From assembly GCF_021917145.1 (NCBI RefSeq), contig NC_061070.1, forward strand, positions 17,049,395 to 17,113,394: DNA of 64,000 bases, in the 5' to 3' direction. Shown here in pieces: positions 2,798 through 51,804 of the stretch (its first letter is position 1; every line of letters starts with the position of its first letter). The translations under genes were made by a program, and so were the position numbers. Under the pieces are notes generated by a model. The model made no database searches. It was not told where the DNA came from and saw only the letters and a list, made by a program, of their open reading frames with translations. The stretch is from Hypomesus transpacificus. Taxonomy: Eukaryota > Chordata > Actinopteri > Osmeriformes > Osmeridae.

Positions 2798-4308
2798 GTG
2801 TTTGTTGAATCTACTAATTCATTCATGTGAGTGAGTCAAATCCTACTAATTCCCCTTCACTTACAATATAGTTGACTAACAACTTTTTAGAGATTAGAGT
2901 AGATAAAGAGCATTATTTAGAAATACAGTTTGATTAAACGTATACTTATTGAACTAAAACTACAAACAAAATATGACATGAATATTAAGCAACATTTCAT
3001 AAAGTAGTTATGATTGTCACTTTATTTTTACTAAGAAAACATTTGCTGGCCTGTTAACACAGTAGCTGTAATTGATACGGTGCTAGGTTGAAAAGAAATG
3101 GCATGACAAAATGACACTGAGAGTCCTGAACTTTGACAATGGGGCTTCTTATTAGGTTTCCTCCTCCAAAGCTTCGTGCTTCAGTAGCTTATTCCTGACT
3201 TCAAATGACAGCACGTCCCGCCATGATTCTGATTGGCTCCAGAAAGTTTGCTTCCTGCTTTTAGACTTAGATGGTCTTTTTGTTAAGTCTGTTCCACCAT
3301 GACGGGCTACACTTTGGTTGATATACAAGTCAGTAAAATAAGCCTGAAGAGTGTATTATAGAATAGTATAGAGTATAGTAGTGTATAGAGTATAGTTTTA
3401 CACTGTATATGGTTTCTCCATATGTGAAAAAAGAGTTTGCCTGCCAGATTCATCTGTTATTTATGAAACATTTAAATAGCTATACTAATTGTCGTAATTA
3501 GTTATCATATTACATTATTAGGTTTAAACCACCCCTGATGCATTACACCCTTTCAACTCACAGCAATCATGGCTGACACTTGACTATATTTTAGTGTTCC
3601 CAAGGTCCCTAACATCTAAATGCTTACTATTTGACCAAAACAATATAATTTAGACCAAGACTGAAAGTTGGACAGGTCGGTCTATCGGCCTGGTTTCAAA
3701 ACAATATTTTTTAGAACAGTGTAGTGTTTTAGATGCAACGTAATTCTCCAGATGTCATATAAAAACGTATTAAGAACACTAGTAGTAGAATAAAGCATAC
3801 AATAACACCAAACCGACCAATGATATAGAAAATTTATTGAATGAGTTGGTTATTTTGGTATGTCTATATTACAATAAAAATAAAAAATCCCTCCAATGGA
3901 AGAATTAAGTTTGTACCTTTCCCACCATCATCTTAAGTAGGCCCAACATAACCGCATGAATTATGAATTTGCTTGCCATACTTTGAAAGCATAGAATAGT
4001 CTTTCCAATAACAGATATTTTGGCCTTGACCAATGTTAAATTGATTTTCTGTATTTAAAAGCCAAACGTAAATGTATATAGCAGGGACAGGATCATTAAT
4101 TAAGCAGGTAAAAAATCAGTATACACATGGTGTATTTCATACGGAGGGAAGCCTGTTATTTTCTGAATTGTTTAGCATGTTAGCTGCATAAGAAACATAT
4201 TTAACAACAAAAAGAATAAAGTGATATAATAGACTGTTTATGTCCTATAAGAATGCTTTGTATTGTGTAATAATGTATTATTTGTGAGGACAATTATCAC
4301 GAGCAGAG

Positions 4309-6067
4309 TCAATATTCAATCTTATTATAAAGATTGTACAATGGTAACGCTGGAAGGCTGCTCCCGGGGTAGTACAGAGGCGTTGGGAAAGCAATAGACC
4401 TTGGAACTGGTACCCGAAGCAGCGAGTTATCTCTGAAAACTAGCGGCATCCCCACAAGTGTTTGTGCGGAGGCATGTGCCATGTTTGCCGCCTCCAGTTC
4501 GGCCGAGAGCTGTCGCTTCCACTTGTTCCTGCGGTTCTGAAACCACGTCTTTACCTGAGTTTCAGTCAGTTGCAGACTGGATGCTAAGCAGGCGCGTTCG
4601 GAACTGCTCAAGTATCTTTTCATATCAAAGGTGGACTCGAGTTGGTACACTTGACTCCGCGAGAACACGGTACGAGTCTTCTTCTTGGCTGAATTACTTT
4701 GTTTGTCTGCCCCGTCTGCCTGTCTTTCTTCAGATATCGGTGACATTTGATTGCATGGTCTCTCTTGCTGCTCTTTGTAATCCTGCAACAGAGTCGGTCG
4801 CCGTGCAATCCCGTCATTGTTGGAAATAAGTCCTTTTGGTTTACCTGCATTTAAGAGATAAGTGGGAAAATATTACACCTCAAACAGCTGCTTCCACGAA
4901 CTGATCGCTGAATAGGCCTACGTCAACAGCATAACTGAGTGCTGACATGAACATGTGATTTATACGGTTATTAACCTGTAGCCTAAAGCAGAAAATACTA
5001 TCCGACACATGCACTGTCTCAGATGAAATTAAAATTATATTTAGAAACTACAGCCACTGCTGTAATAACACACAAAAAACGGGTTAAATAAAGACATTTC
5101 TGAAGCCTGAAATATTTCGCAATTAGGCCTATCTATTTTCACATTTGACTATTATATTGAACATTAGGTAGGCGTATTAGTCTATACAATGAGCTTTTAG
5201 AACACCCCAATTGAAGTTCCTAAATTGTTCGATAGCCTAGCCTACTCTGTACAAGAGTTCATTAAACGTGAACTTTGACTCATTCATCGACTGCTTAAGG
5301 GTTGTAAGTGCCTTTTAAATAAACAATTCAATATGACTATGCCTGGTGTACAATTTTAATTAAATCAGGCTACATTTAACGCTCAATTGACGATATGTAA
5401 GTGCTGCCATTGTGAAAACATAATCAATTAGAAGACTTGATCAAATGTGGAATGAGGTGAAAAACATCGCGTTGATTATTTTACCTTTTGCCTGTTCGGT
5501 AAGATAGGCTACATAAACACTTTAAGCAATACACTAAGTAAGATCATATAAGTAGGCTAGAGATTGGCTACCGCAACCAATGTACTTTCTTATTAAAAAA
5601 CGAATCGTTTAAATATCCAACGTTCTTTTTGAAATCCAAAAAATGCCTTAAATGTGTTGTTAACACTGTTATAATTATTAGGCTATCTTGTCATCTAATT
5701 TATCATGTGTTCAAGAGAAAGGAGACATATTTCATGGACAGCGATTACAGGCTAATGCCGAAACAGAGTTTTTTTTATCTACAGATATATTTTACTCACC
5801 TAAACATGAAAAATTTAGAGGTTGATGTTGGATGCATGGTTCGTTGTGGCCAGGGTCCGAGCAGAAACAGTCCGCAGAGTCTTCCCCGCCGCTGCATTCT
5901 TCCTCAGAGGACACGGACAGAGAGCGTCTACGCGGCAGGAGACCCTTGGTGCTTTCCTTAGACCCTGACCGAGGCGCGTCGGACGATGTGCCCAGGATCG
6001 ACTGAATAGTGAAACTGGAAATAGGGGTTGACGAGCACTTGCTTCCGCTGTTTTCTGTGTTACTCAT
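4309..6067 (-). CDS. hmx2: Homeobox transcription factor HMX2 (NKX5-2 type)
   Basis: Two coding exons. Exon 1 is 6067-5800 (ATG at 6067, donor GTGAGT at 5799) and exon 2 is 4844-4309 (acceptor TGCAG ending at 4845). The join is phase 1 and yields 267 residues, close to the roughly 273 of mammalian HMX2. The N-terminus has an eh1-like co-repressor motif (FTIQSILG, about residues 19-26), then [12 protein letters not shown], as in HMX2. The homeodomain spans about residues 143-202; its recognition helix reads [15 protein letters not shown], and the Thr distinguishes HMX2 from HMX3 (Ile). The C-terminus ends [12 protein letters not shown], a family hallmark. The family works in the nucleus, in inner ear, lateral line and hypothalamic development. 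It lies 3' of its tandem paralogue hmx3 on the same strand. A second acceptor near 4783 would break the frame and was not used. Confidence 0.96.
4845..5799 (-). other. hmx2 intron
   Basis: Single 955-bp phase-1 intron with GTGAGT donor and TGCAG acceptor on the minus strand. It is AT-rich, and no other feature is visible. Confidence 0.85.
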
Positions 6068-6301
6068 TCTCGATTCATAACAGTGAATATAGGTTCGATT
6101 TCAGATTGTATTTTATTCGGTTATCAATGCTGAAATTTACGCTTGCACCTGGGTAAAGGAATTGAGAAAAGTATATGTTTTTAGATAGCTTCTTTTTATG
6201 GGGATGGGGTTAGCGTTGTTTTTTCCTAGAGCTCAGGGAACATGAATGTATTCCTGCACTACTTCCACGCGCTCTGGACCAAAGGCAGCATTGTGGCGTT
6301 G

Positions 6302-6346
6302 CCTCATTTGCATGTAGGTAAGCTCCTCGTGGGCCAATCACACGCG
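6302..6346 (+). promoter_or_regulatory. CCAAT/octamer-like module upstream of hmx2
   Basis: Read on the plus strand: CCTCATTTGC (6302-6311), 22 bases, then CCAATCACACGCG (6334-6346). The same two blocks, with the same 22-base gap and one mismatch, occur on the minus strand at 13953-13909 upstream of hmx3. The module starts 235 bp upstream of the hmx2 ATG. The CCAAT block resembles an NF-Y site and the first block an octamer-type site; binding is inferred only. Confidence 0.5.
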
Positions 6347-8319
6347 CAAACTAAGCCCGGAAATTTCAAAGCCATGTCACGGCTCAATATAGGATGAGTG
6401 AAGCGAGTGTGTTAGTTTATTTTAGCATGAATATAAATTCAGAGACAAACAGGCAATGTGGCTAAGAAATTAGTATAAACAAAACATTATAGCACATTGT
6501 GTGTGTTTGTGTGTGTTTGTGTGAGTGCGTGTGTCATGATTCCATGAAACGTTGGTGTGTGTGTCATGATTCCATTAAACTTTGCTATATAGCCTACAGT
6601 ATGTTAATTAAACATTCATTAATTCAGGATTTTTATTGAATGATATTCTGCATGCATGCACAATTGTTAGCTGTTAACAGTTATAAATATAGCATAGAAT
6701 CGTTTTTTATAAAACCTTGATCCTCCTGGGTTGTAACTTATCATTGATGTAAATAACACGCTGTGTTATATTTATTCAAAACAACGCTCATATACAATCC
6801 CAGAATCTCCAACTTTAACAGACGGCCCCATCATTCTAAAAACGAATCTTCCTGTCTCTGAAAACGATTAGATATGTGAACTCTGTAATCAATAGATTCA
6901 CATCCGAACATAATCGTTGATAAATGCCAGATGACAGTTAATCTCGAGTAGGGTATACCAGTTGCAGGCTATCAGAGTCGTGTCATCTTGCAATGGCTGA
7001 ATTTGCTTGTCGTCGTTATCATCATCATTTGTCACTTTCACATAACTCAGCAAAACTGAGATATGTGTCTACGACCATCACACAGTGATGGAAATCCCTG
7101 TATTAAGTTTAGATGAATGACACATGCCAAACCTACTTTTTTTGCTATTTCTTAGGTTGATTCGAAGTAAAGTGATACAATATGCAAAGCAATTAGGTGT
7201 CAACAGATACGAACTGCACAATGATATAATGTAATGTATTATCATAAGCATCATGCAGTACTTTGCCTGTAGGCGAATAATAGAACTCCAGGCCTATCGT
7301 CTGCAGGGGCCTAAACTCTAGGAAATATAATAAACTCTTCCCATGTCCATTATATGCGATTAAGAATTAATTTGATAATTACTGAGCTAATCTCGCGCTG
7401 CCGCACGGAGTGGGGGCCATCTAATTGATTGACTAATTGATTGGAGGGTGGGGGCGCATCCCACCTCTGTCCCCCCTCCTCGCTCTCTCTCTCTCTCTGT
7501 GGTCATGTCTGGCTGGGCAGCTGCGGGGCTTGAGTTCGCGGTTCTAGCGCATTATCCCTTTTTACTGCTTTCTGAGACCCTAGACACATTATAAATGGTG
7601 AACTTTATCATCATGTCAGCGCCCGCACCTTCAACACTCAGTTAGATGATGACCCCTGCCTTTGACTCTGTTTTAAATATTGTTTGCATGGATTGTAGTA
7701 GGCTATTTATATGTGTTTGGGACATGAGTTTTTCAGCATCTGTTAGGCGCATATGCCCACTGAGATGACCATTTACAAGAGATATAGCCTATGATGTATG
7801 AGGACATAAGCTTGGATTTACGGTGGCTACACAAAACGCGTGAAATCTGCAGTAAATGGGTTGATTTTTATTGCTTTTGCCGTTTTTTTTTTATAAACAC
7901 TTTTTTAACAGTGGTGATGTATTTTTATACTTGTGCCTTCTGCAATGTTTAAGCTACATGACATTTCTGTCCAACATATATGAATATTCATAGGAGCAAC
8001 ATTAAAATTGGTTCTCCTCTGGCGCGAAAAACCAATTCGTGACTATGTATCCAGACTTTAGGCCTACGCCCAGGGATAGTAGGACTACAGGTCTAAGTTC
8101 GTGCTCTATCAAAAGAATAACTGTTGCATGGCATGCCTATCGCTATATAGAACACGATCTTTACCATAGGAAAAAGGTCTTAAAAGACACATGAAGTTCT
8201 GAGCAGCTTTGATCTAGGAATCAAGCTTCGATAAATATTAAACAAAGACCCTTACACGTGTTTATTATGATATATGGTGTGTCCAGCTCTAGAATAAGGA
8301 AATTACCAGAGAAAATGAT
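6347..8319. other. Proximal upstream region of hmx2
   Basis: No exon is seen. It is AT-rich, with homeodomain-type TAAT/ATTA clusters around 7370-7445, including repeated TAATTGATTG-like words. It is part of the non-coding interval between hmx2 and hmx3. Confidence 0.5.
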
Positions 8320-8474
8320 ATCAATAAATTTTCTAAGTATAAACGTTGATTATGTTTCGATTTTCATTCAAGGATCCAGGCTCCAGTCTTTTTTCTTTTT
8401 CCAATGCCTGTGTGTGTGTGTGTATGTGTGTGTGTGTGTGTATGTGTGTATATGTGTCTGTGTGTGTGGGAGGG

Positions 8475-8569
<95 letters not shown>

Positions 8570-8790
8570 GGTTTTTATAAGTGCTAGGCAGAAAGCGCGA
8601 GCCCTGGAGGTGTACGATTTATGTAATCTGAGTCTGGAAATGAATTGGGTAATTTATTGGAAAACAGAAAGTCAGGAAGATTGGATCAGTATAGCCCATC
8701 CAACGGCTCCTATCCATCAAGTTCCAATTAACAACCTAACCATTGAGTTTTAATGGCTTTCCAATCTACTGCCCTGATAGACTCATCAAT
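8320..8790. promoter_or_regulatory. Candidate enhancer, copy 1 of a duplicated pair
   Basis: Three blocks recur in the same order and orientation at 17709-18052. Block 1 (8320-8366) shares CAATAAATTTTCTAA and TTCGATTTT. Block 2 (8636-8700) shares GGAAATGAATTG and GTAATTTATTG. Block 3 (8751-8789) shares TAATGGCTTTCCAAT. No coding reading explains the match. This copy is about 2.25 kb upstream of the hmx2 ATG; blocks 1 and 2 are separated by a GT/GA microsatellite. The enhancer role is inferred from paralogous conservation beside paralogous genes. Confidence 0.7.
8409..8563. repeat. Compound (TG)n / (GA)n microsatellite
   Basis: Imperfect TG run (8409-8468) followed by a pure GA run (about 8477-8563). 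It sits between blocks 1 and 2 of candidate enhancer copy 1. Confidence 0.95.
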
Positions 8791-11700
8791 TCCTCGGGGA
8801 GAAATTAAGAAAATCGACCGCCCGTCGGCGTTTCGGTGTCATTCTTCACAGCAACTATATGTCAAATTAAAAACACAATTAAAATTTAAACTGTTCCAAT
8901 CAGACGGTGCCCCGCAACCTATGTTTCACTTAATAGAACTTTGATGAAAATCGGATGCTCACATTCAATCACAAAAGCAAATGGGATAGAAGAAAGAAGA
9001 TTTCTGTCTCAGAAGTGTCAGATATGTTGTGGGTACTGACTAACTGTGACCACACACTGCCAATTCAGCATGTGGGTCAACTAACAACATGACACCAGTG
9101 TGACTATAGGCCCACTTAGAAAATGTTTCTTACTTTCAACGATCGTTCAATCTCGTGTTGGCTCCAGAATATATTGCATTCTATAGCAGTATGTCAATTT
9201 TCAATTATATTCGATAATAGCCTGCATTGCCAAACATTAAATGTTCAAATCCAAGTATATTCTATTAGTGACAGAATATCTTCAAATGTGTGCATGCATT
9301 CGGAAAAGTTGTCTACTTTATTTGTCCCTCACGCACGTGAGCAGACAGATGCCCAGCAACAAGAGGGCTAAAATTACAAAAGCGGTTGGCCACTTGATCC
9401 GCGCGCGTATCCAAACTGGCACTATAGTAGGCCTATATGATGGGCTGTGCTTAAAATCAGCCACTCAACTTTCCATTTTAATGTAATACACTGAGCTGCC
9501 TGCGGCCACGTCCGTCATGTCCATACTTTATCTGATTTTTGCACTCGCCCCTTCTCCTTAACATAAAAATGTCGTACAAATGGAAATTATCGAGTGGTAA
9601 TTTTTTCAATTTATGCGCGCAAACCAAGGTCAAAAGCCTGGCCCTAACTGTCGGTGAACGCTGTCCTTATTTTAAACAATATTTTTCAGACATTTTTGGA
9701 TCAATACTTTCTGGGGGAAGAGCGCAATGACAATCTATTAATTGGCTTTAATGGGGCCATATTCAGTTTGCATGATATAATACGTCAATACGAGAGGGAA
9801 TATCAGACTATATTTGCATGTGTTGTCTGGTGCTTTGGTCGTCGTAGAAAGACCAGATGTTTTGTTTTCAACAACTTGTCATAGGCCCTAGACCAAAACA
9901 AAGTTAGCCTACTCTTTTTGCAGTTAAACTGGTTACAATGATTTACGCGAGAGTGCTTTGCGATATTGTTATAAAATGTAAATAGACTCAGCAAGGCTAT
10001 GTCTAAAGGTGAGCTTATTGGCTATACTTGACATTGAATGTAGGCTGCCTAAAGTGTCGTCGTAAAACACGTTGGCCGTTTTGCCAATGCGTTGCCAGTG
10101 CATGCGTAAATTGATAGTAAGAAATACACTTTTTTCAAGACAATGAACATTTCTATTTTAACAGGAACATTATGTGCATTAGTATTGAAAATAGTATATG
10201 GTGTATTTTACCTAGGCTGCTTGAAGTCTACTTCCACGTGCGTGGGCCTACTCCTTAAAACCTGACTGTGGTAAATGTAATAGCACAGTGTTGATAGGCA
10301 GAGTTCACCTAAGCGGAGTTGACTTGATGAGGAATACTGGTAATTTTCTAATAATAACGACATAAATTAGTATTTAGGTAGGTTCCGACAACTGAAGAAA
10401 AATCGGCACGGTGCATTAACTGTGTGACCGGTCAGATGCACCGAAAACATAAATAAAAACACTGCAAGGTAGTGTGTAAACTATGCTTGAACGCACCCAC
10501 ACGCGTGCTCTAACCCACGTGCAAGCACTATTACTTGCACGCGCACACACAAATGGTTAAGTGGCTGTCATACTCAACAGCAATTTCCTCCTTTGAATAC
10601 ATTACCTATAATTTTGGCAAGATGGTGGCAATTACGCATCTAATTGACCGAGCCATTTTTTATGTAAAACCACGTTTTAAAGTGTATAACAGACGGTTGA
10701 TTACGATGACACACCTGCTGAAGTTCTTCCCATACATCAAGAGTTTGATATCAAAATGAATGTATTTGTGTTTTCGTTTGAGTACATTTGGATAACTTCT
10801 GCTGACTACCGATTACATAGGCTACTAGCCTGAATATTCTAAAATACAAAACACATTTAAGTTTAAAACATCGTGGAAAGTTGCTTTTAAATGCTTAAAA
10901 TTATGTAGGCTGAATGTTAAACATATGATGTAAATGTAAACTGTAGCCCAATCAGGACTAAAGAAGCCAGCTTGATAAAAATGACTGAAGTCTGAGAAGA
11001 CAATCAAAGAGAGACAGGTAGCATAACGGGAAGACTACTGCTTGATATCCGGTCACGATAGTTCAGACGGTAAATGTTCCCCTGCTTTGGAAAAAAATCT
11101 TAATTATAGGCCTATATTGCAGTGACTGAATAAAAATGTCATGCAAATGTAAAGCGATACTTTTCAGATAAAGGAAATCATGTACAAATGTGTGTTATGA
11201 ATGAATATTTGGTAGCCAGATAAAATGGAAGTAACGCCACCTGCAAAACAATAGCTTCAAATAACCTGTGGCTTTTGAGAATGTGATGTAAGATGTACCC
11301 TAGAAGGTATGAAATAATCTCCATTTATTTCACATCAGATTTCAGCAACACAATATCAAAAAGGTTTTCTTTTTTACTGTACAAAGGAAGAGCACAAATG
11401 GATTGCTCTGTTCCTTAACTCGATTAAATATATTCATTTACATTTGTACACCACGTAATTGATTCAAACACAACGTGATATTTCAGATAAAGGTAGAGTG
11501 CTAACAAGTCAAATTGTCGACAAAATATAGGCCAAATGGGAATTAGTAGGCCTACAATAAACATAAAGCAGAATTTATATTGTACATAAATAGTGTATTC
11601 GATTGTCCCCTGTAAACGCGCTTCATGAAATTGAATCCTTAAACCAGTTCAATAGTTTGCCCAAGTGGCCTTGTTCATGTTCCAAAACAGCCAGAAAGGA

Positions 11701-12143
11701 GAAGGCTAGGACATAGGCTTATGCCAACTGTTAATTCACTGTACATTGTTTACAGTATTGCACATCAAAATGTCATTGTTCACATAAAAATAGCCTACAA
11801 ATCTGCTCCCGTTGTTGTAAATTATACTGCACTTTAATAAATTTGGTATTTTGCATGTTTTATCCTGAATCCGAGATAATTCTAGGAAAATAAAAACCAC
11901 GGCTATATTTACACTGATAACTGAAGGGTCACATAACAATAATAATATTATTACTAATAAAATGGCGTGTATGTTAAACATTGAACTTTGGAATTTATCA
12001 GAAATTCACCCCTTCCAAGACAGTCTCTCAGTCGTATTTTTTTATACAAAAATATGTCTTGTGTAGGCTATTTTAGAGACTGATTTTTGTAAAGTTTTTG
12101 TTGTTGTTGATGTTTGTTTAGTTTTTTTAACTGAGGTATTCTC
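8791..12143. other. Non-coding interval between hmx2 and hmx3
   Basis: No exon is supported. Open frames here are short, lack splice context and have no family resemblance. The interval would contain the 3' UTR of hmx3 (adjacent to 12143) and further regulatory DNA of hmx2. A run at 9540-9790 looks complex and may be conserved, but this is untested. Confidence 0.5.
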
Positions 12144-13388
12144 TCAGACTGGTCTGAGAAGCGGCACGGAGGTGACGATAGGGTGGGAGTAATAGACGGG
12201 GTGAGGGAATGTGAGGAGCGGCTGGCTCACAGGCACGTTGGACGCCGCGCTTCCAGTATCCGAGGCCGAGCTCTCGTGGTAGAGGATGGGCACTCGCACT
12301 ATCCTCTGTGCTGCAGCGTGGCTCAGGTTGGCAGCTTCCAGTTCAGCTGCCAGCTGCCTCTTCCATTTATTTCTCCTGTTCTGAAACCAAATTTTAACTT
12401 GGGTCTCTGTCAGGTGTAAAGAAGCAGCCAGGCCGGCCCTCTCGGAGCTGCTCAAGTAGCGTTTCATGTCAAAGGTGGACTCCAGCTGGAACACCTGACT
12501 CCTAGAGAAGACAGTGCGTGTTTTCTTCTTTCGACAAGGTTTCTTGTCCGCGCCGTCCTCGTTTTTCTTCCAGTCATCTACCCCACTTTCCCTCTTTGTT
12601 TCTTCTGAATCACTCTCCTCGAGAACGATCTCATCGCCGCTTTTGTTGTCATCGTCATCTTTAGCGTCTGGGTCGGATTTGAGCACCAGGTCTGGCGAGT
12701 CGCGGTCTGTGCCGGAGGTTGGAGAGGAGTCTCTCGCACTTGCTTTAGCCGCAACTAAAAGGAACAGGAAAAACATGTTATAAACGCGGCTATATATGTA
12801 ATTACAACAATGGACTACATTTTCCTTGATAGCATTGACCGTTCATAGGCTACTGTCATGGTAAACATATTAAAGTAAAATAAAATAAAAAGCACAGGCT
12901 TGTCTACTGTGGAGCATATTAAACATGGATACATTTCAAGATAACTTAATTTTATGAAAACTGGTGATCAAAGCATGACCCACACCATAAACCTGTAGCA
13001 TAATCAACTTAATTTCCACAAAATCAATATGGTACATGTTTCACCTACTGAAATCGAATTAATTAAACTTCCACTAGTTCCATGTGTGTATGACCTTACC
13101 TTCAGTCCTGTGTAGATGGTTGGACGCACTCAGCGTGTATGGATACCACCAAGCTGAAGCTCGCTCAAGGTAGTGTGCCGGTAGTGCAAACCTCTGTGTG
13201 GGTAACTCGAAGCGAGGAAAGTTCAATTCCCCGACGTGGGAGAAGGAAAAGCCACCTTCCAATGCCGTTTTTGTCGAGGCAAAAATAGGCTTGGGTTTAG
13301 ACGGTTTGCTATCACAGTTCAGCAAGTTTTTGATGAAGAAAGGGGAGTCTTTAGCTGTAGCGCACGTCTCTGGTGCCGTCTCGGGCAT
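12144..13388 (-). CDS. hmx3: Homeobox transcription factor HMX3 (NKX5-1 type)
   Basis: Two exons. Exon 1 is 13388-13100 (donor GTAAGG at 13099) and exon 2 is 12754-12144 (acceptor TTTTAG). The join is phase 1 and gives 299 residues. The start is taken at MPETAPE, matching the MPE start of the family; an in-frame upstream Met ten residues earlier is possible. Features are an eh1-like motif [10 protein letters not shown] (about 15-24), the HMX3-specific block [20 protein letters not shown] in exon 1, an acidic stretch, and a homeodomain at about 172-231 with [15 protein letters not shown]. The tail ends TSVPLLRPV, as in HMX3. It is a nuclear regulator of vestibular, lateral-line and neuronal fate. 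It lies upstream of hmx2 in tandem. Fish can carry more than one hmx3 copy, so an a/b suffix is not given. Confidence 0.96.
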
Positions 13389-13908
13389 GGCTGTGCGATG
13401 TTTGCGATCCGAATGCAAAGAAGTAAATATTCAGTCTTAACTCGCCAACAACAAAGCTTGCTCACAAACAGTCGCTGGTTTGGCTTTGACGTCTGTTAAT
13501 TTCCCTTCTCTCAGATATTTAATGCGCAATGTCTCCGTGGATAGGTGGCTGACGAGAACGTCAAAAAATAAATACACCTTGGTCAAATAGCTTACTCAGA
13601 AAGTAAATAGCCTATAGCTTATATGAATATTGCATCCCAGTCTTGTGTGTTCCTTGGTCAAAACGCAACCATGTCCACAGCGTCAGTCTGGCGCCGGATG
13701 CTAATGATGAAATAAAAATGTCATCCAAGTTAAATGCGGAAAGTATACGGCGATTGGGCACGTACAATGGCAAATGGGATTAAGGAAGAGATCGGAAGCG
13801 GAGAGAGAGAGAAACAGGCGAAAGAGAGAGGGAGATAGAGAGAGTGCGGGATGACAACGAAGTCCAACCTCTCTACACTTTGCGCTTTGGCTGTAGGCAG
13901 TAAATGCT

Positions 13909-13953
13909 CGCGTGTTATTGGTCTTATATAGTCCAATTAGGTAGCAAATGAGG
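13909..13953 (-). promoter_or_regulatory. CCAAT/octamer-like module and TATA-like box upstream of hmx3
   Basis: Read on the minus strand: CCTCATTTGC, 22 bases, CCAATAACACGCG. This is the same module as at 6302-6346 but in the opposite orientation relative to its gene. The 22-base spacer contains CTATATAAG (plus-strand 13923-13931) in the sense direction of hmx3, a good TATA-like box, which would imply a 5' UTR of roughly 500 bp. A (GA)-rich stretch lies between it and the ATG. Confidence 0.5.
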
Positions 13954-16325
13954 ACAGGGTTGTTAGCACAAAAGGAAAGGTTTGGGATAAGCGTCTATAG
14001 TGCCACAATGGGTAAACGACTCCCATCAAGCAGCTATAGTCTTGAATTAGGTCAATAAGCTGCAGTTTATTATTTCATAAACAACACATTTTTATTAGGC
14101 TATTAAAACAACTTTCAATGGTAAAATGACAATTATCAGTCAAATATAGTTGTCTTGGTTGTTATTGTTTTGATTTTTTAAACATATTTTTTTCTATAAA
14201 AGTTAAAAATAGTCAACTAAATTGTTGCTTAATTGAGTAGGAATAGCCGAGTATAGGTTACTTTCTTTATCTTACGATAAATAAACTTCCCTCACAGACT
14301 GTGCCAATGTGCCGAATATACTCTACATTGTAGACTAAATATAAAATGTGTGTTACCCATATTGTTTTTCCCACGATGGCCGATATTGCTTTCATGTTGC
14401 TATGCATGTTGGTTTAGTTCTGACCATGAATTAACATTTAGGGTCGGATATCGGGGGTTGAACAGAACTATGGTTTGCAACAACGAGGAAACACCGATTT
14501 AGTGTATCTTGAAAAAATATGCTTAGTTCGAATTCAAGGACATAGAGAGGATAGGCCTATCAGTTCCAAAGTATACATACTCATAAATTATTTTCTTTAA
14601 TTTGAATTTGAACACAATCAAATATTTTACTATAAGGAAGTCCAGTGTCGTACAGTGAGAGCCCCTCAAGTTCCCCGTGTGTCAACATGGTTTTCACATG
14701 CAAAACTTGAAAATTGTAAAATCTTGTTTTAATCCAGCCAAAAAAATGTTTAATCACTGCCCAAAGAACTAATTTAGTACTGTAATTAAAATGTGTCATC
14801 AATGACCAATTATAATCATATTTCATTGATTTTCAGAGCATGCCACTTTTATAATGTTCCTGGGTTGCACACGCATTCATTTTTTCCAAATCGATTTTGT
14901 TAATTCACTCCTCAGATTGAAGCCATTGTAAATGTGGTTTGTATATTCATTCATTGATATTAATTGATTTGTTAGTTCATGTCCAATGCTGGATGAATAA
15001 CGAGGAGACAGCGTCCTCTGTGGGTGATAAAAGCTAATTGCAAGTGTCTGAACTGCTTTCTTGCAGGAATTTAATGCTGCTGAAATAGGTTTAGATTGCC
15101 CCCAGATTAACATTCAATTCATTAGTAATTTTACATTGCCATCATTGTTTTCGTCATCATTCCATTTACATGCCATTAGACGAGATGACAATCTTATTTT
15201 TTACTTAGAGGAACACAGGTTACCGTCAACATGTCTATTAATGTAAAAAACGTCAGTGGACGGTATACATTACAGGCTAAAGGTAGCTGTATTGAGTGGC
15301 ATGGAGTTTTTCCATGTGCTTATGGTCTCACGAGGCCTCAAATATGCTAAAGCTACTTGAAGTAATTAACATGTTCATTTAGACCTGTGCTCAAGTGCTC
15401 ATATCCTGTGACGTAATTACCGTATTTAGTTTCTTGTTTATTATCGCAGGCATTATTATCCATGCGTGACGTTGTAAACATGTGCCTGCATGAACCCTAG
15501 TCTCCACATTTACTGTATTCCACTGGACTAAAAGTAGGCCATACATCCATAAAATATTTTATATGCTTGGACATAATATTTTAGCTGGGACAGAATATCC
15601 CTTATATCAAATACAAGTATTGAAAATATGGGTAGGTAATATCAGCATCTTAAAAACGTATGCAATTGATAAACATATAGCCTTGATTATAAAGACATGT
15701 TACAGCGGTCCCGTGCATAAACTGCAAGGTAATATTAATACGGGCTTCTTCGTGTACACTAAGTCTATTTCCCTCCTGTAGGCTACCCGTACTTTTATAT
15801 TATTTATTTCAAAGCGCCTAGATATTGATTATTTCACGAGGAAAATGACAAATGGCAGTGGGGAATGACACGGTCAGCAGGTTCTATTAGAGAAATGATA
15901 GTATTGCTCATGGTTTGTTAAAAGGTCCAGTTTAGATACTTTATAGGTTTACATCCATCATCGTCTAATGACCTATATGATGAAAAACACGAGGCTTGGT
16001 GACAACAGCCCTGTGCAGCAACTCTGATTTGTAATTGCTCCCATATTAAATATAGATTTTTGTTTTGATATCTTGTGAGAATTCCTTTCTGCGGGTCAAG
16101 ATTGTGATAAAAGACATAGATTTAATGGTGAAAGCACAGAGCGAAAAACAAACTTGAAAAAATGGACAGGTAAAAAAAAAATCTCAAAAATATCTGAGCC
16201 CTGTTGAGAGCTTTAGTCACTGAACATTTATAATAACCACACCTATAAAATAAAGGCCTTAGTGCCAGGTATTAGACCGACCTGAAATTTCTAATGCATG
16301 CAGGCTATGTTTTTGAGGAAATTAT

Positions 16326-16351
16326 AAATGTTCTTCATGTGAAGAACATTT
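16326..16351. other. Perfect 12-bp inverted repeat
   Basis: Arms AAATGTTCTTCA and TGAAGAACATTT flank a 2-base centre. It is a nearly perfect palindrome in non-coding DNA upstream of hmx3 and could be a dimeric factor site. No run of T follows, so it is not a terminator. Confidence 0.6.
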
Positions 16352-17708
16352 AACGATTGACCATCGTATAGGACTACGGTAATGCATGAGTCCGGTGGAA
16401 CCTGACCAGTCTGAACTCTTTCCACGTTTTAATGGTAATTTCCGTTTGAACGAACCATTAAACAACCGAAGGTCACTGCGATTGGCTGCATTTAAGTCTT
16501 GCATTTAACTTGTAAAAGAATAGGTGGCCCTTCGATGACCCGAGAAACCTTAATTGGGATTGTGCCGGTATTGATTGGTGAGTGGTCGGGCGAGGCCTGA
16601 GTTACAACCCAGTAAGAAGAAGGTGTCTGCCACTTTCATTTGCCCTCCTACGTCAAGACACAGCCAATAGGCGGATTAAGGGTCTCAATGTCATTCAGAA
16701 GGTTGGGAGATGATGTTGGCTCTGGAGTGGCAACACTCGGCACTCCCTGTTTGAGCAGGAAAATGCATAAGCCAAGGCTGTGTCTGCGAAGAAGACACGA
16801 TGGCAACAAATGTGAAAACGAATAGTCACAGCTAGGGCTGTTTGCGTGCGTCTCCGGTTGGTTTGAAATAAACCTACTTTGAGAGAAGAGAATGTGGATT
16901 AATGTCATTCAAACCAAACCCGCCTGAGCACCTATTACTGTTAGTGAGCGTCTGAGCTTCCACCGCAGGGAATACGAAGATGTGGGCATTTGAGATGGGT
17001 ATTTCTGTTTTTATACGTCTCACATTTTATATCTATACTTCTGTACCTTTTTAACTCCGTCTTTCCCATTATCGTTTCTCGGTAGAGATGATGACCGATA
17101 TGGAGTTTTGATGGACACTGTCAGAGCGATGTAGCCCTAATTCACCATTACGACCAACCTAGACAGAACCCTACAGGCTTCCAGTTTCCATATCAACTTC
17201 CTGCTTTGGAGAAACTGGACCGATTCGACACTGAGCCTGGGCATTTTATCCGCCTGCACCCAACCTGACTCGACATGTCATTACAACTGGGTAATCTGGT
17301 GCGGGCGACAGAAAGGTTCTCATCAGTGTCAGTCTGAGATATAGATATGGGCCGAGTAACAAATGGCCAAATGCACAGGCAGCAGAGCAGACCATCAATA
17401 AAGCAATTTCTAGTGTCATAACAGCTGCGCTTTTCCTAAAGCCAACCTTTCAAAAACTTTTCCCTCTGCAAATCGCTGCAGCCCCACCATTAGAGGCCTG
17501 CCTTGTGACTTTAATGGATTCCGTACAAATAATATTCCACCATAATGGAAAAGGTTGAAGTCACTGAAGACAGATGAAGTCATAAACACGTATAATTGAG
17601 AATCAAAGACCGATAAATTTTAAACTGCTATCCATTTTCTCTTTTTAGATGATGATCTATGCTGTGGTGGTGGCTGGAAAATGAAAGAGATTATGGGATA
17701 AAATTATA

Positions 17709-18052
17709 ACAATAAATTTTCTAAACATACACCTTGATTATGCTTCGATTTTTTGGAGGGGGGGGGGGTGAGGAGAAGGCTACGATTGCTGAAAGCTTGC
17801 TAGCTAAATGGCACTATAAAATAGGTCCCCTGCTCTTTTGCCTGCGGAACTCAGGCATGCCTGGAGCTGTGATTTTCTCCCTTTAAATGGGGAAATGAAT
17901 TGTGTAATTTATTGCAAACTCGAGCACAGTGAGATTAGATCAGCATATCCCATCAAAGGAACAACAATCAATCAGCTTCTAGTTAACAGCTTGAAACGCA
18001 TAAACCAGGGCACCTAATGGCTTTCCAATTTAACAGATTGATAGACTTATCC
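17709..18052. promoter_or_regulatory. Candidate enhancer, copy 2 of a duplicated pair
   Basis: Blocks 17709-17752, 17890-17954 and 18015-18050 match, in order and orientation, blocks at 8320-8366, 8636-8700 and 8751-8789. The first two blocks are closer here because the microsatellite of copy 1 is absent; only a short poly-G run sits near 17757. It lies about 4.3 kb upstream of the hmx3 ATG, as copy 1 lies upstream of hmx2. This suits a tandem duplication of gene plus enhancer. Confidence 0.7.
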
Positions 18053-19615
18053 GGTCTCAGTGGATGAATTAAAAAATCGGGTACTTCCACACGGGTACTG
18101 ACACTTTTGACAGAACATTTTACCCTCATATTGCTGTCTTACTGCCTATATTTAGTTTTTAATGTAGATAAAGAGTAACAAAGTTATATAGCCAACCAAC
18201 TTTATATCTCTCTATTGCTGAGAAAGCAAGTAGGCCTGTTCAGATGACGTGATAGTGGAAGTGTGTCAGATGTGTAGAATGGTTTCATTTTAATGACCTG
18301 ATTATCGCGGGTCATTTGGAAAATCTCGGGGAGCTATTCAAAGCCCCTTAACAATATCTAAATGTGACCCAGGCGACCTATTCAACCGAGTGAAAACGAA
18401 TAAAAAATACCCCTTTTCCAGCCCGTCTTTAGTCAGACCAATGACTATTTAATGAATTGATCTGAAAAACAGCTATAAGACCACCAAAGAGGTCTTGGGA
18501 AGTTATTTTCGAGTCCCTGTAACCAGTTTATACATATGCAGCTAAATGAAACCAGCAATATGTTTCCACGAGCAGAAAACAAATCTGTAATCCCCTATCA
18601 AAAGGAGCGACCACCACACTGAGATAGAAGTCCAGTGGTGCTGTATAGGCCCAGGTCTGCCCAGTCAGGCTTTGAAACAGAGAGCCACTGAAGCACTGAC
18701 TCAATGTCACCATGTTCTCGAGGCTAGATGCTGTGAGAGATTATCTCCCTGTGGCTCTACATAATTAAGGAGACGTTGGTATCAAGGATGTGATCCTGAG
18801 AGGGATGGGAAAGTGTTATCTTAGATTCGGACGATCAGAGGTAGCAAGCCCATTGTGGGGCTGAGACTGGAGTGGATCAGTCCACTCTGGAGTGGATGAG
18901 TCCCACTCACTAGAGCAGTGTCTCAGGTCACTTCCCTATCAACGGGCTGAGCCCTTACAGAACCAGTGGCCCGCAGTGAACATGTGACTGCCATACATAT
19001 CTTAAAAAGAAACAAGATCTTCTCATCGGCATGAACTAAATAGATGGTTGGGGTCAATTTCATCTAAACCTGGTCAGCGAAGGAAACAGAAGGAGAATCA
19101 CCTCATGACTTAGGAAGGGACAGTTACTGATTATCTATATATATATCAATCAGTCGACCAATGAAACTGCCCCACTATTGGTGAATCAACCAATCAGCAC
19201 CACAGTCCCTGTCTATGTCAGAGCAATAAAACCTGTAGACACTCAGCCAGAAATCCTCAGCACAAATATATGCCTCCGGTGACGGACAAATATTCCGGAA
19301 CAAGCTTTACCCTTTTTTTTCTATTGTGGCAGGAAATGAAGTTGACACACAATTGTGTTTACCTGACACTAACACTCATGTCATCACCGTGGATACAACT
19401 GCAGTACAAGAAGTACAACATCACCCAGCACACCACGCATGATTGCCCCCTCCTTGTGAAAGACAGTAATTGGTGTTTGTGTGCTCTCCTTCTCTTTCTC
19501 CTGTCGCTTTAAAGAGTGTGGTAAAGAGTGCTATCGCTGGCACCTGATTAGCATGTGTCCTCTGCCTCTTCCAGCAGCTGTCGGGACTGCCTAATGACAG
19601 GAAACTTGAGCAGAG

Positions 19616-19803
19616 ACACACATGCACACACACACGGGCACGCACACACACAGGCACACACATGCACACACACAGACACGGGCGCGCACACACAGGCACA
19701 CACACACAAGCACACACACATGCACACATGCACACACACACACACAGGCACACATACACACACACACACACACAGGCAGGCACACCTACACACACACACA
19801 TGC
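19616..19803. repeat. Imperfect (CA)n microsatellite
   Basis: CA-rich tract broken by CATG, GGCA and CGGG words. All six frames give low-complexity His/Thr or Cys/Val strings, which are not genes. Confidence 0.95.
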
Positions 19804-20642
19804 ACAGCTCTGCTGAAGTCATACATACCAGTACTTGTTCCTTTTCTGTCAATAGTGTGCTTCTTTTTTTGTAATTTTTCTCCTGTCTAAAGTAGGTATG
19901 CTATTATAGGCTTCTCTATTAAACAGTCAAAATGGAGCATTGATTATTTGTAAAAACATAAGTGCAAATCAAATCAACATAGCACGATAAAAGATGAGGG
20001 TTGCTTACCTGCACATACACAGGAAAATGGGAACAATTATTGACCAATTGATTTTCATGTGGGGGGCATTTATTTTCCCCCTTGAAAAGGCCTTGACTGT
20101 GGAACTCCCCCATTTCTCCACAGCACCATCACACCAACAACCACCACCGACTCCCTCCTGTGCCCTCAATCTCCCTGCACCCTCCCAGGAATTCATTTCT
20201 CAGCCTCTGGAATGCAACTTTTCCATCAGCACTGTTATATATTTGGCTTTCCATTTCACTTTAATAGGGACGGAATTGGCTACATATTCTTTTACAGCCC
20301 CCCGACACCATTAGAAAGCCTGTTGTCATTTGGATTATTTATGAAAAACTATTTCATGCTTACTTACATTTGCTTATTTCCCCCCAGTGCAACCTACAGC
20401 AGATTTGGTCCATTTCAAACGTCTTAAAGCCAGTTCTTTACGTGTGTAGGTCGCAACTCTCGATTGCGCCCGGGCTGAAATGCTGGTGTAGAGGGCCAAG
20501 CCATGGAGAAAAGGTGACAGATAGATTATGGGGATGCCATGTGAGGGAAGAGAGAATGGAGAGAAGGGGCCATTGCATGGTTAAAAGGACATGGATTCTA
20601 AGAGGTAGATGAACACGAAGAGCTACACAAGGTGGAAAATAG

Positions 20643-20836
20643 AGAGTCAAGTGGCTGAGCGGGTAGAGCATTGGGCTAGTAATCTGAAGGTTGCCAGTTC
20701 GATTCCCGGCCAGTACGATGACGTTGTGTCCTTGGGCAAGGCACTTCACCCTACTTGCCCCGGGGAGAATGTCCCTGTACTTACTGTAAGTCGCTCTGGA
20801 TAAGAGCGTCTGCTAAATGACTAAATGTAAATGTAA
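20643..20836 (+). mobile_element. tRNA-derived SINE with L2-type tail
   Basis: The 5' end is tRNA-like: GTGGCTGAGCGGGTAGAGCA resembles an A box and GGTTGCCAGTTCGATTCCC a B box. A short body follows, then the tail GATAAGAGCGTCTGCTAAATG with TAAATG repeats. The same family occurs at 38211-38410, 43190-43380 and 47386-48070. Confidence 0.85.
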
Positions 20837-22561
20837 AATATGAGACTGGGTAAAAGGGAAAGCTTGTAGAGGAACAGTTAAGAGGGTGCTTTCTAGAGGG
20901 CAGAAACATGGTAGATGTGGGTTGGGTCAAGGAATAAAAAATATATGCCATGACACCATAAGTTTTAACACACTGACAAGCAAACAGAGAAGGGTGTTAT
21001 GTTACCATGACAAATATAATAGTTTGGAATAGACACAGTAAGAAACATGCTAAGATAGCAGAGGAAGTTATACCATGGATTTATATTTTAGTCATAAAAC
21101 ATGCCATTTCCTTTGTCATCGTATGGTGTTTATGAGTGTCATTGAATGATTTTAAACCATTTCTATCGACTTTTCCAACAGTTAAAAAGGCAATTTTGTC
21201 ACGCAGCTCAAATTTAATCCATCAAAACTGCCTTACTTAAAGTTAATGGTATAGCCAGATAAAGCAGGTGACACACTCCTCAGCAGAATGACACATCCAT
21301 CCTTATAATCGCAAGCTTACTGTATACCCCCACCCCCCTCGCACACTCACGCACATACACACAGACACACTGTGTGCACATACACACAGACACACAAATA
21401 CACACACAAACTCTTTCCAGTGTTTGGCCTGTGTTTTATAAAGTGACCCTAATAAACTGCGGTGTGGCGCGGCAGGTTTGTCACTGTCACAGGTAAATGA
21501 TGTAATTAATGAGCGCAGAGGGGAGCGTATCAGGGCTGGGCTGGTACCTCTTAAACACCTCTCCAGCTGGCTGGGTTTGGGAAGGCCCAGCTGGACACAA
21601 CCACGGGATCGATGCAGGGTCAAGGGTCAGCCGACCCCCCTATTATGGTCTGTGCTGCTCTCGTTCTAACTAACGATGCCTGCAGGAGCCAGGACAGCGG
21701 TTGGGGATGGAGTTTGGAGTGGGTCCGAGCCTCGAATGAGGGCTTGGATCAGGCCTTGGTCTGGGGCCCTGGAATAGGTCAGTGGGCCTGGGTTGGGGCC
21801 TTGGTTCAGGGTTTGGCATGGAGATAGTGCTTAGGCCACAGCCAGAACAGGGAGGGTTTGTATGGTAATAATGTTGGACTGAAAGGAGGTCTTTAAAACG
21901 TTTTAATATACAAAAGGTACTGTGGTACAAATTGGACTCACATACTATATTTCCGATCTCAAACACAACATAGCTACAGGGGGAAGGCCCTTGGCTAGCG
22001 CTATGAGTCATTGGGTAGGATAGGACACAGAGCAGCAGGGGAACATGGGAAATCGTTCCTGGCCAGATTGGGTTTGATCAATACTCTCAAAGGGCACAGC
22101 CCTCATTAATCTAAAACTTCCCTCACATTAGGAACTCTGTCCGATTGAGACCACTCTATTCCGACTCAATGGCTGCTCCAATAGATCCATTTAGTTATCT
22201 AAAGCATTTAATCTAAAGTGCACATATATAGGATGTAACGTTTGTGGAATCTAAGAAGGAAAACATGCATTGTATGGGCCTGAGTACATTATAGCACTAA
22301 GCAAGCATGATTGGATCTGAGGCTCAATTAAGTTCTACTCAGGCGATTATTTATCACTTCAAAATAAGCAATAAATACAAATGAAACCTAGATCTCTCTG
22401 TAGAACCTATAATAACCGAAAAGTCAACTTCTTATTTGTTGTATTTGTCAGGTTTTATTTTTAATTGTTGTATGCTGAAGAATATCCCTGTCATAGACAA
22501 GCCTACGAGTGCATGGTTTGTGAAATCAACCCTGAAAAAGTAGACAAGTCTTCTTTGGTCT

Positions 22562-22680
22562 GAGCCGTGTGGTGGACATGTGGAGAGGTTCTGAGCCGTG
22601 TGGTGGACATGTGGAGAGGTTCTGAGCCGTGTGGTGGACATGTGGAGAGGTTCTGAGCCGTGTGGTGGACATGTGGAGAC
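22562..22680. repeat. 31-bp minisatellite, about four copies
   Basis: The unit begins GAGCCGTGTGGTGGACATGT; copies start at 22562, 22593, 22624 and 22655, nearly identical. It is non-coding. Confidence 0.92.
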
Positions 22681-25600: not shown

Positions 25601-26879
25601 TACCTAATCCATGAGGTTTGTTTTGTCTGTGCTATCCAACTCAAACACTACATATCTGAGACTTGTTTAACTGTTGTTCATTTAACGTTAACTTCAATGT
25701 GGAATGATCAGTATTTTTGTTTAAATGTGGGTGCTCTGTCGATCAACGTCAAAAGCGAACGGACGGAGGCAAACGTGTTTCAACAACAGGACACGTATGC
25801 CACCCAGTGCCAAATATCGGGACTGTCTCTATAGTAGCTAATTTTCGTTTTCTCGTCAAATTAATGTCTAGAATGATTGTAGCATGTAGGCTACGTATGG
25901 TGTGTAACTACATTTTTCTCATCCAAACATATTAAGTCTACTCAAGCCTTTCTGACAAGTTGCTCACGTTGCAAAGGTCAGGCGGTTTCTATTACTTGTT
26001 GTAATTTTCTGGTTGCTTCCCAAGAAGTACGTAGGCCTACCATTGAAAATGGATACGATGGCTTCGCACAAACTAGTCATTTATCACTCTGTCTTTAATG
26101 CTCTTGCTTGAACGTTGACACAACAGAGGGAATGTGATCTTCTGTAAACTTATTAACCGTTCAATTATTGATTGTGATGAAACATGCATGAGTCAATTTA
26201 ACGCAATGCGTCAGCTCAAATAAGAATCTTCGTGTAATTGTGGGATTTAATTTGTGTTAGGCGTTTTCTAATTGTCTAATGCCATGCAGGGAATTTCGTT
26301 TTTCAGAAAATTACATTCTAGGTATAACATGTTGTTATCGAAGTTAGCCTACAGTTTTTTAATTGAAGGCCTGATTATTAAAATACTTTTTTTATTTATC
26401 TAGCTAGCCTACCTATTACTGTAAACTGAATTTTTCAAGTTACAACATCGACACTAATGAGCAATAACTTATCCTATAGGAACTGTTATTCGCGCTCCCA
26501 TTGCACCAAAGGCGGGACAGATTTCACTGATGGACTCAATGAACTTTAACCCCATGAACAGCTTCATTGTTGTGATTCTGGTAGACAAGCGCTTCTCTTA
26601 CACATTTAGACTGAACAGAGATAGCCAGTACGATAGAAACAATAGTATGACTTATTGCGGTCAAAGCTTGGTTATTAATATTAGGATTTTTTAAGGTGTC
26701 AACACAGTTTTTGTGGGCTACAAATGACGAAATGTCTTTAGGGGTAGATAGCTGGCTGACGCGTTAGCAACCACAGCAACCTGATGATGGGGAATGCTGC
26801 TTAGCCACAACGACTTTCAACGCCACCGACTTCACGCAATATTGTCCATCACTAGCGTCGTATGCCCGCTATGTCAGTC

Positions 26880-26934
26880 TAAAACATAGCTTACGCTTGT
26901 TACTTAGGGAAGCTTTCGCTGACGGTCTGAAAAT
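26880..26934 (+). other. Possible 5' non-coding exon end of ikzf5
   Basis: A good donor (AAAAT then GTAAGT) follows 26934, and a good acceptor (TTTATTTCAG) ends at 27090, just before the exon carrying the ikzf5 ATG. The exon start and promoter cannot be fixed from sequence. Confidence 0.35.
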
Positions 26935-27139
26935 GTAAGTTAACTCTTAGTGGATATTGTAACGTTAACTTGTATACTGTAACTAGCTCTAACTTCATAA
27001 TCAATCGGATCATGTTGTAATTAAAGCGATTTCTTATTCCAGCATTTGTAACTTCATGCTGACGCAGTCTATTGTATTCATTTATTTCAGTTGGAATATT
27101 GCACGGAAGGCCACCTGAAGCCGCCATTACAATATTCCA

Positions 27140-41766: not shown

Positions 41767-51804
<10,038 letters not shown>

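What the first reader, a model, noticed from the sequence alone, without database searches (positions are those of the whole stretch)
8320..18052. Paralogous non-coding element pair upstream of hmx2 and hmx3
Three blocks at 8320-8366, 8636-8700 and 8751-8789 reappear in the same order and orientation at 17709-17752, 17890-17954 and 18015-18050. Nothing else in the surrounding non-coding DNA matches this way. Each copy sits 2-4 kb upstream of one of two tandem paralogues, as expected if an ancestral Hmx gene and its enhancer duplicated together and both enhancers were kept. I recall published work on a tandem-duplicated enhancer pair at vertebrate Hmx loci; these may be its fish counterparts. 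The shared words (TAATTTATTG, CAATAAATTTTCTAA, TAATGGCTTTCCAAT) carry homeodomain-type cores.
Basis: partly seen in the sequence, partly recalled or inferred. Interest (0 to 1): 0.8.

Follow-up and report, generated by a model that had tools for sequence, protein, structure and literature searches.

The report
Duplicated hmx2/hmx3 enhancer pair
Two matching stretches of non-coding DNA beside a fish's hmx2 and hmx3 genes are most likely surviving twins of an ancient duplicated switch for these genes, a kind of element already described at vertebrate Hmx loci.

Summary
Two collinear, same-strand non-coding segments match: E1 (about 8184-8817, between hmx3 and hmx2) and E2 (about 17567-18080, upstream of hmx3). 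The best local score is 71; the highest in 40 dinucleotide shuffles is 39. The reversed-sequence control gives at best E=0.86, against 1.2e-11. Fourfold-degenerate sites of hmx2/hmx3 exon 2 are saturated (10 of 34 identical, 8.5 expected), so such similarity points to selection on both copies. Zebrafish CNE III lies 3199 bp past the hmx3a stop (E1: 3327 bp) and drives spinal-cord expression, not ear or lateral line (PMC10683209). The Nature 2022 Hmx paper that I recall as describing a tandemly duplicated enhancer pair is not held here. The ear/lateral-line guess is thus contradicted by E1's positional counterpart and unsupported for E2. Orthology rests on position only, since no other vertebrate sequence could be aligned; enhancer function is inferred.

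The parts
8184..8817 (.). E1: paralogous non-coding element between hmx3 (3') and hmx2 (5'); positional counterpart of zebrafish CNE III
   Evidence: blastn and local alignment to E2; position compared with PMC10683209 section 8
17567..18080 (.). E2: paralogous non-coding element 4.2-4.7 kb upstream of hmx3; perhaps the counterpart of zebrafish CNE I or CNE II (cannot tell which)
   Evidence: blastn and local alignment to E1; distances; zebrafish positions
8184..8243 (+). E1 block 0 (new), pairs with 17567-17625
   Evidence: local score 31, null maximum 29, 0 of 1000 shuffles reach it
17567..17625 (+). E2 block 0 (new)
8296..8364 (+). E1 block 1, holds CAATAAATTTTCTAA and TTGATTATG
   Evidence: 56 of 69 identical to 17684-17752; 0 of 1000 shuffles reach it
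17684..17752 (+). E2 block 1
8636..8733 (+). E1 block 2, holds GGAAATGAATTGNGTAATTTATTG
   Evidence: pairs with 17891-17988, E 1.8e-9; 0 of 1000 shuffles reach it; the 24-base core has two matches in the window at up to 3 mismatches
17891..17988 (+). E2 block 2
8751..8787 (+). E1 block 3, holds TAATGGCTTTCCAAT (CCAAT box) and TGATAGACT
   Evidence: 29 of 37 identical to 18015-18051; 0 of 1000 shuffles reach it; word found twice in the window at up to 2 mismatches
18015..18051 (+). E2 block 3
8268..8275 (+). PBX-HOX-type word TGATNNAT in E1, in register with 17653-17660 of E2
17653..17660 (+). PBX-HOX-type word in E2, in register with 8268-8275
8712..8719 (-). PBX-HOX-type word in E1, in register with 17967-17974 of E2
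17967..17974 (-). PBX-HOX-type word in E2, in register with 8712-8719
4309..6067 (-). hmx2 gene, coding exons about 6067-5800 and 4844-4309 (splice sites read by eye)
   Evidence: homeodomain, Pfam E 1.3e-21; ORFs; ATG and exon edges; hmx name recalled
12144..13388 (-). hmx3 gene, coding exons about 13388-13100 and 12754-12144 (splice sites read by eye)
   Evidence: homeodomain, Pfam E 3e-22; 84 of 138 aligned positions identical to hmx2; hmx name recalled

Best explanation
E1 and E2 are paralogous transcriptional enhancers. An ancestral Hmx gene with one 5' enhancer was duplicated in tandem, giving hmx3 (with E2 upstream) and hmx2 (with E1 upstream, in the hmx3-hmx2 interval). Both copies have since been held by selection while their spacers diverged; E1 carries a large GT/GA microsatellite between blocks 1 and 2. 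SHOWN HERE: the similarity, its statistical strength, the collinearity, and retention beyond saturated synonymous divergence of the two genes. INFERRED: that they are enhancers, from location, from lack of coding or RNA-family signal, and from the spinal-cord activity of the zebrafish element at E1's position. INFERRED and less certain: that each works as a multi-site platform binding homeodomain, PBX-HOX and CCAAT-binding factors and acting on the hmx genes in cis, with E1 serving spinal-cord interneuron expression.
For: Alignment statistics and controls. hmx2/hmx3 exon 2: 34 fourfold-degenerate sites at identical amino acids, 10 identical, 8.5 expected from composition, so synonymous sites are saturated while non-coding blocks keep 56 of 69, 26 of 28 and 29 of 37 positions. 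No Rfam match in either element at gathering thresholds (whole window; its three matches are UnaL2 LINE ends elsewhere). In-register PBX-HOX-type words, 2 of 2 in each copy. Zebrafish: CNE I and II 5' of hmx3a and CNE III between hmx3a and hmx2, found by comparison with human, mouse, chicken and Xenopus sequence; CNE III drives spinal-cord expression (PMC10683209 section 8; [quoted passage not shown] A CONDOR element named hmx2.9713, chosen for a conserved PBX-HOX motif, drives hindbrain and spinal-cord expression in zebrafish (PMC4489388 passages). A mammalian CNE lies about 4 kb 5' of the Hmx2 start codon in a bat (PMC4302572 passage).
Against: No sequence of any other fish or vertebrate could be aligned, so orthology with zebrafish CNE III rests on position only, and the published primers found no convincing match in the window. 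E1's distance to the hmx2 ATG (2117 bp) differs from zebrafish (3297 bp), and E2's distance to the hmx3 ATG (4179-4692 bp) fits neither CNE I (6193) nor CNE II (2886). CNE I and CNE II gave only weak ectopic F0 expression, which argues against E2 being a strong stand-alone enhancer in fish. The MEIS/PREP word CTGTCA that makes PBX-HOX sites predictive is absent from both elements; the only one found within 100 bp of either is at 18108, outside E2. In that study only 7 of 29 elements picked for PBX-HOX alone were hindbrain enhancers. Motif matches were not tested against shuffles. Joint duplication of gene and element is assumed, not dated.
Confidence: 0.85

Rival explanations
1. Chance similarity of AT-rich non-coding DNA.
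For: Block 3 alone is only E 0.02; the words are AT-rich; a stray 15-base match to block 1 exists at 3826-3840.
Against: Score 71 against a maximum of 39 in 40 shuffles; three to four collinear same-strand blocks; nothing like it in the reversed control or in three overlapping stretches of the rest of the window.
Confidence: 0.01
2. A dispersed repeat or transposon end that landed twice by chance near the two genes.
For: Genome-wide copy number could not be checked. The window does carry repeated elements (UnaL2-type LINE ends).
Against: Only two full copies found in 64 kb; blocks conserved with diverged spacers; matching position and orientation relative to two paralogous genes; no Rfam match there.
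Confidence: 0.03
3. A recent local segmental duplication (or gene conversion) of non-functional DNA rather than an ancient, selected pair.
For: Same order and strand; no outgroup sequence was at hand to date it.
Against: Only discrete blocks match well; the block 1-2 gap and the 3' flank match weakly or not at all (39 of 1000 and 89 of 1000 shuffles reach the observed scores), and the adjoining genes are saturated at fourfold sites. A recent copy would match throughout.
Confidence: 0.03
4. The shared blocks are unannotated exons or a non-coding RNA rather than enhancers.
For: Conservation alone does not tell enhancer from RNA; Frith and Ni raise RNA function as a possibility for ancient segments in general (PMC10735318 section 4).
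Against: The three frames of 100 aa or more that overlap E1 all run through the microsatellite and none overlaps E2; no RNA family match; the zebrafish element at E1's position works as an enhancer on a minimal promoter.
Confidence: 0.06

Closest known systems
Vertebrate Hmx tandemly duplicated enhancer pair (Papadogiannis et al. 2022, Nature 605:701; paper not held, content recalled, citations seen)
   Same: Two paralogous non-coding elements at tandem Hmx genes, one upstream of Hmx3 and one between Hmx3 and Hmx2 (positions recalled).
   Different: That work, as I recall, tested reporters in lamprey and Ciona.
Zebrafish hmx3a/hmx2 CNE I, II and III (PMC10683209 section 8)
   Same: E1 lies where CNE III lies (3327 against 3199 bp past the hmx3 stop); E2 lies upstream of hmx3 as do CNE I and CNE II.
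   Different: Zebrafish has two elements upstream of hmx3a (6193 and 2886 bp from the start codon); only one copy of the shared blocks is found upstream here, at 4179-4692 bp. In the section and passages read I saw no mention of paralogy between the elements.
Hmx enhancer conserved from vertebrates to sea anemone (Royo et al. 2011, not held; Frith and Ni 2023, PMC10735318 section 4 and passages)
   Same: An HMX3 enhancer 20 kb from BUB3 in human; E2's position upstream of hmx3 is compatible (human gene spacing recalled).
   Different: Sequence not compared; the text read does not say which boxes the Hmx segment carries.
CONDOR HMX2/3 elements, e.g. CRCNE00009716 and hmx2.9713 (PMC4302572 and PMC4489388 passages)
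   Same: Conserved elements near HMX2/HMX3; CRCNE00009716 lies about 4 kb 5' of Hmx2 in a bat; hmx2.9713 has a PBX-HOX motif and drives hindbrain and spinal-cord expression.
   Different: Sequences not in the text read, so identity with E1 or E2 is not shown.

Membership tests
Vertebrate Hmx tandemly duplicated enhancer pair | Two non-coding elements similar to each other at one Hmx locus | tested here: met
Vertebrate Hmx tandemly duplicated enhancer pair | Tandem Hmx paralogues on one strand with one element 5' of each | tested here: met
   (hmx names recalled)
Vertebrate Hmx tandemly duplicated enhancer pair | Both copies under purifying selection | tested here: met
   Blocks 78-93% identical while fourfold sites of the genes are saturated, 10 of 34 against 8.5 expected; assumes gene and element duplicated together
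Vertebrate Hmx tandemly duplicated enhancer pair | Sequence homology to the published lamprey and gnathostome elements | not testable with these tools
   Paper not held; no vertebrate genomes among the collections; one pattern scanned in bacterial/archaeal and in viral contigs gave 0, as expected
Vertebrate Hmx tandemly duplicated enhancer pair | Enhancer activity of each copy | not testable with these tools
   Zebrafish positional counterpart of E1 active in spinal cord; CNE I and II only ectopic in F0
Zebrafish CNE III orthologue (E1) | Position between hmx3 stop and hmx2 start | tested here: met
   3327 and 2117 bp here against 3199 and 3297 bp in zebrafish
Zebrafish CNE III orthologue (E1) | Sequence match to CNE III | tested here: inconclusive
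   Only the two 20-base primers were available; no convincing match
PBX-HOX/MEIS hindbrain enhancer syntax (PMC4489388) | TGATNNAT sites | tested here: met
   Two in each copy, in register; conservation in other species not tested
PBX-HOX/MEIS hindbrain enhancer syntax (PMC4489388) | CTGTCA within 100 bp of a PBX-HOX site | tested here: not met
   None in 8084-8917; in 17467-18180 only one, at 18108, about 130 bp from 17974

The most novel reading that the evidence does not exclude
E1 and E2 both descend from the Hmx enhancer reported as shared with sea anemones, and the two copies have divided its inputs: a common core (blocks 1-3, CCAAT box, in-register PBX-HOX words) with a Hmx-type CAATTAA word only in E1 (8725-8731) and plus-strand TCF/LEF-type ATCAAAG words only in E2 (17602, 17952; E1 has one such word on the minus strand, at 8207, not in register). 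E1 would then sustain spinal-cord expression by autoregulation, while E2 is a context-dependent partner that is silent alone.
Probability: 0.15. Interest if true: 0.5.

Novelty: already known. Interest (0 to 1): 0.25.

Why it matters
It is a further view of a known vertebrate regulatory duplication: two enhancer copies retained beside two tandem paralogues long after synonymous sites saturated. If E1 is the counterpart of zebrafish CNE III, what the two copies still share (four blocks, about 260 bases in all, with two PBX-HOX-type words and a CCAAT box) points to the functional core of that 919 bp amplicon, which is directly testable. Beyond that it is expected biology for this locus.

Tried and rejected
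Chance similarity: rejected by shuffles and the reversed control. Coding or RNA-family explanation: no support. A third copy at 3826-3840 (inverted, 15 bases): E 0.076-0.12, no flanking match by eye, treated as chance. A weak pair 11129-11146/13711-13728 (E 0.25): not significant. Zebrafish primers as proxies for CNE I-III: best 13-15 of 20 positions for each of six primers in 6001-27300, none placing an amplicon; a 9-base match at 17494 next to E2 is at chance level by my own estimate. NCBIfam gave nothing for the two Hmx proteins, as expected for a bacterial library; of 110 PDB matches for hmx3 the 60 shown are homeodomain chains, none named Hmx, so the hmx2/hmx3 names rest on recalled sequence features and locus context. 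A literature search for three core words found 0 papers with the two long ones and 6 with the third, none with Hmx in the listed title or abstract start. A printed statement that zebrafish CNE III is paralogous to CNE I or II was not seen in the listings or the passages read, but the key Nature and PNAS papers are not held, so no novelty is claimed. I did not look for acadsb or bub3 in the window.
Full report
THE OBSERVATION. blastn of the hmx3-hmx2 interval (6110-12143) against the region upstream of hmx3 (13431-27340), with microsatellites masked, gives these as its top three hits (8184-8360/17567-17748, E 1.2e-11; 8636-8733/17891-17988, E 1.8e-9; 8751-8787/18015-18051, E 0.020), and nothing else below E 0.25. 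The best local score between nearly the same two regions is 71, against at most 39 in 40 dinucleotide-preserving shuffles. Reversing one sequence gives at best E 0.86 (run with either side reversed, which is one control in two equivalent forms), and three partly overlapping stretches of the rest of the window give at best E 0.25, 0.25 and 0.86.

The similarity runs further 5': 8184-8243 matches 17567-17625, and 0 of 1000 shuffles reach its score (31, highest null 29). Weaker collinear stubs lie in the block 1-2 gap (39 of 1000 shuffles reach it), in the tail of block 2 (17 of 1000) and just after block 3 (23 of 1000); the 100-400 bases after block 3 show nothing (89 of 1000). I therefore place E1 at about 8184-8817 and E2 at about 17567-18080. 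E1 has a large GT/GA microsatellite between blocks 1 and 2; E2 has instead a short G-run.

SURROUNDINGS. Both genes lie on the minus strand. hmx2: ATG at 6067, stop at 4309; hmx3: ATG at 13388, stop at 12144. Both encode a homeodomain (Pfam E 1.3e-21 and 3e-22), and 84 of 138 aligned positions are identical. The names hmx2 and hmx3 rest on recalled sequence features; no database here names them. Further right lie a C2H2 zinc-finger gene at 27.3-28.7 kb (I recall it as ikzf5), a PH-domain gene matching the PLEKHA-type structure 1v5p (E 2.9e-24), and an HTRA1-like gene (PDB 3tjq, E 6.6e-38). I recall this as the neighbourhood of human 10q26. E1 starts 2117 bp upstream of the hmx2 ATG and ends 3327 bp past the hmx3 stop; E2 lies 4179-4692 bp upstream of the hmx3 ATG.

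AGE AND SELECTION. In the aligned exon 2 of hmx2 and hmx3 (129 aligned residues, 84 identical) there are 34 fourfold-degenerate sites at identical amino acids; 10 are identical and 8.5 would be expected from base composition alone. Silent sites are thus saturated. Non-coding blocks that keep 56 of 69, 26 of 28 and 29 of 37 positions are then not neutral remnants of the same duplication, so both copies have been under purifying selection. This assumes that element and gene duplicated together; a later separate copy of the element is not formally excluded without outgroups.

CONTENTS. A scan with recalled consensus words finds TAAT cores in both, a CCAAT box and a WGATAR word in block 3 of both, and CAATAAA words in blocks 1 and 2 of both. 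TGATNNAT, the PBX-HOX word given in PMC4489388, occurs twice in each element and in register both times: 8268/17653 and 8712/17967; the window average is 0.67 per kb (43 in 64 kb). The partner word CTGTCA is in neither element (one at 18108, just outside E2; none within 100 bp of E1). None of these motif matches was tested against shuffles, and shared motifs are partly expected from homology. A Hmx-type CAATTAA (recalled consensus) is only in E1 (8725-8731), and plus-strand ATCAAAG words only in E2 (17602, 17952; E1 has one on the other strand at 8207).

WHAT IS KNOWN. Zebrafish hmx3a/hmx2 has three conserved non-coding elements found by comparison with human, mouse, chicken and Xenopus: CNE I 6193 bp and CNE II 2886 bp upstream of the hmx3a start, and CNE III 3199 bp past the hmx3a stop and 3297 bp upstream of the hmx2 start (PMC10683209, section 8 read whole). 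CNE III drives spinal-cord expression like endogenous hmx3a but not ear or lateral line; CNE I and II gave only weak ectopic expression in injected embryos. E1 sits where CNE III sits. E2 sits upstream of hmx3 but matches neither CNE I nor CNE II in distance, and the published primers did not settle it. A CONDOR element hmx2.9713, selected for a conserved PBX-HOX motif, drove hindbrain and spinal-cord expression; only 7 of 29 such elements were hindbrain enhancers (PMC4489388 passages). An element lies about 4 kb 5' of Hmx2 in a bat genome (PMC4302572 passages). HMX3 and HMX2 are named among the human transcription-factor genes with the highest density of human-fugu conserved elements (PMC2148067 passage). 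Papadogiannis et al. 2022, which I recall as reporting a 'tandemly duplicated enhancer pair' regulating Hmx in the stem-vertebrate lineage, is not held; papers citing it were seen in passages. An Hmx enhancer shared with sea anemone was reported by Royo et al. 2011 (not held), as told by Frith and Ni 2023 (PMC10735318, section 4 read whole, plus passages), who speak of an HMX3 enhancer 20 kb from BUB3 (author names of PMC10735318 are recalled).

MECHANISM. The best reading is that E1 and E2 are paralogous enhancers kept after a gene-plus-enhancer tandem duplication. PMC7768253 notes that the adjacency of Hmx2 and Hmx3 suggests tandem duplication (passage). E1 most likely serves spinal-cord interneuron expression, by analogy of position with CNE III. 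E2's role is less clear: the zebrafish upstream elements were inactive alone, so it may act only together with E1 or at stages not tested.

LIMITS. No other vertebrate sequence could be aligned, the window's own genome could not be searched, and the species is not identified. One pattern scanned in bacterial/archaeal and in viral contigs returned 0, as expected. Orthology with zebrafish CNE III and with the published pair is therefore positional and inferential.

VERDICT. A real, well-made observation of an already described vertebrate feature, most likely in one more fish. Interest 0.25.

Noticed in passing
window 3826-3840, minus strand: A lone inverted 15-base match to block 1 about 470 bp past the hmx2 stop; E 0.076-0.12, so perhaps chance, perhaps a decayed relic.
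   Followed up: partly
window 11129-11146 and 13711-13728: A 17-of-18 match between a site 3' of hmx3 and one about 320 bp upstream of the hmx3 ATG; E 0.25.
   Followed up: no
window 20773-20826, 38220-38274, 43200-43253: Three UnaL2-type LINE 3' ends (Rfam RF00436), part of a repeat family matching at 84-85% over 168-196 bases.
   Followed up: no
window 33448-34552: A unit with 486-bp spacing repeated in tandem (starts 33448, 33934, 34420; 95-96% identical over 133 nt, first two 98% over 300 nt) near what look like CUB-domain exons (recalled as DMBT1-like).
   Followed up: no
window 27341-57009: Gene order zinc-finger gene (recalled as ikzf5), CUB-type genes (recalled), PLEKHA-like, HTRA1-like to the right of hmx3; I recall the same neighbours at human 10q26.
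   Followed up: partly
window 8410-8575: A GT-rich stretch followed by a long GA microsatellite lies inside E1, between conserved blocks 1 and 2, and is absent from E2; the spacer length between the blocks is thus not held constant.
   Followed up: no
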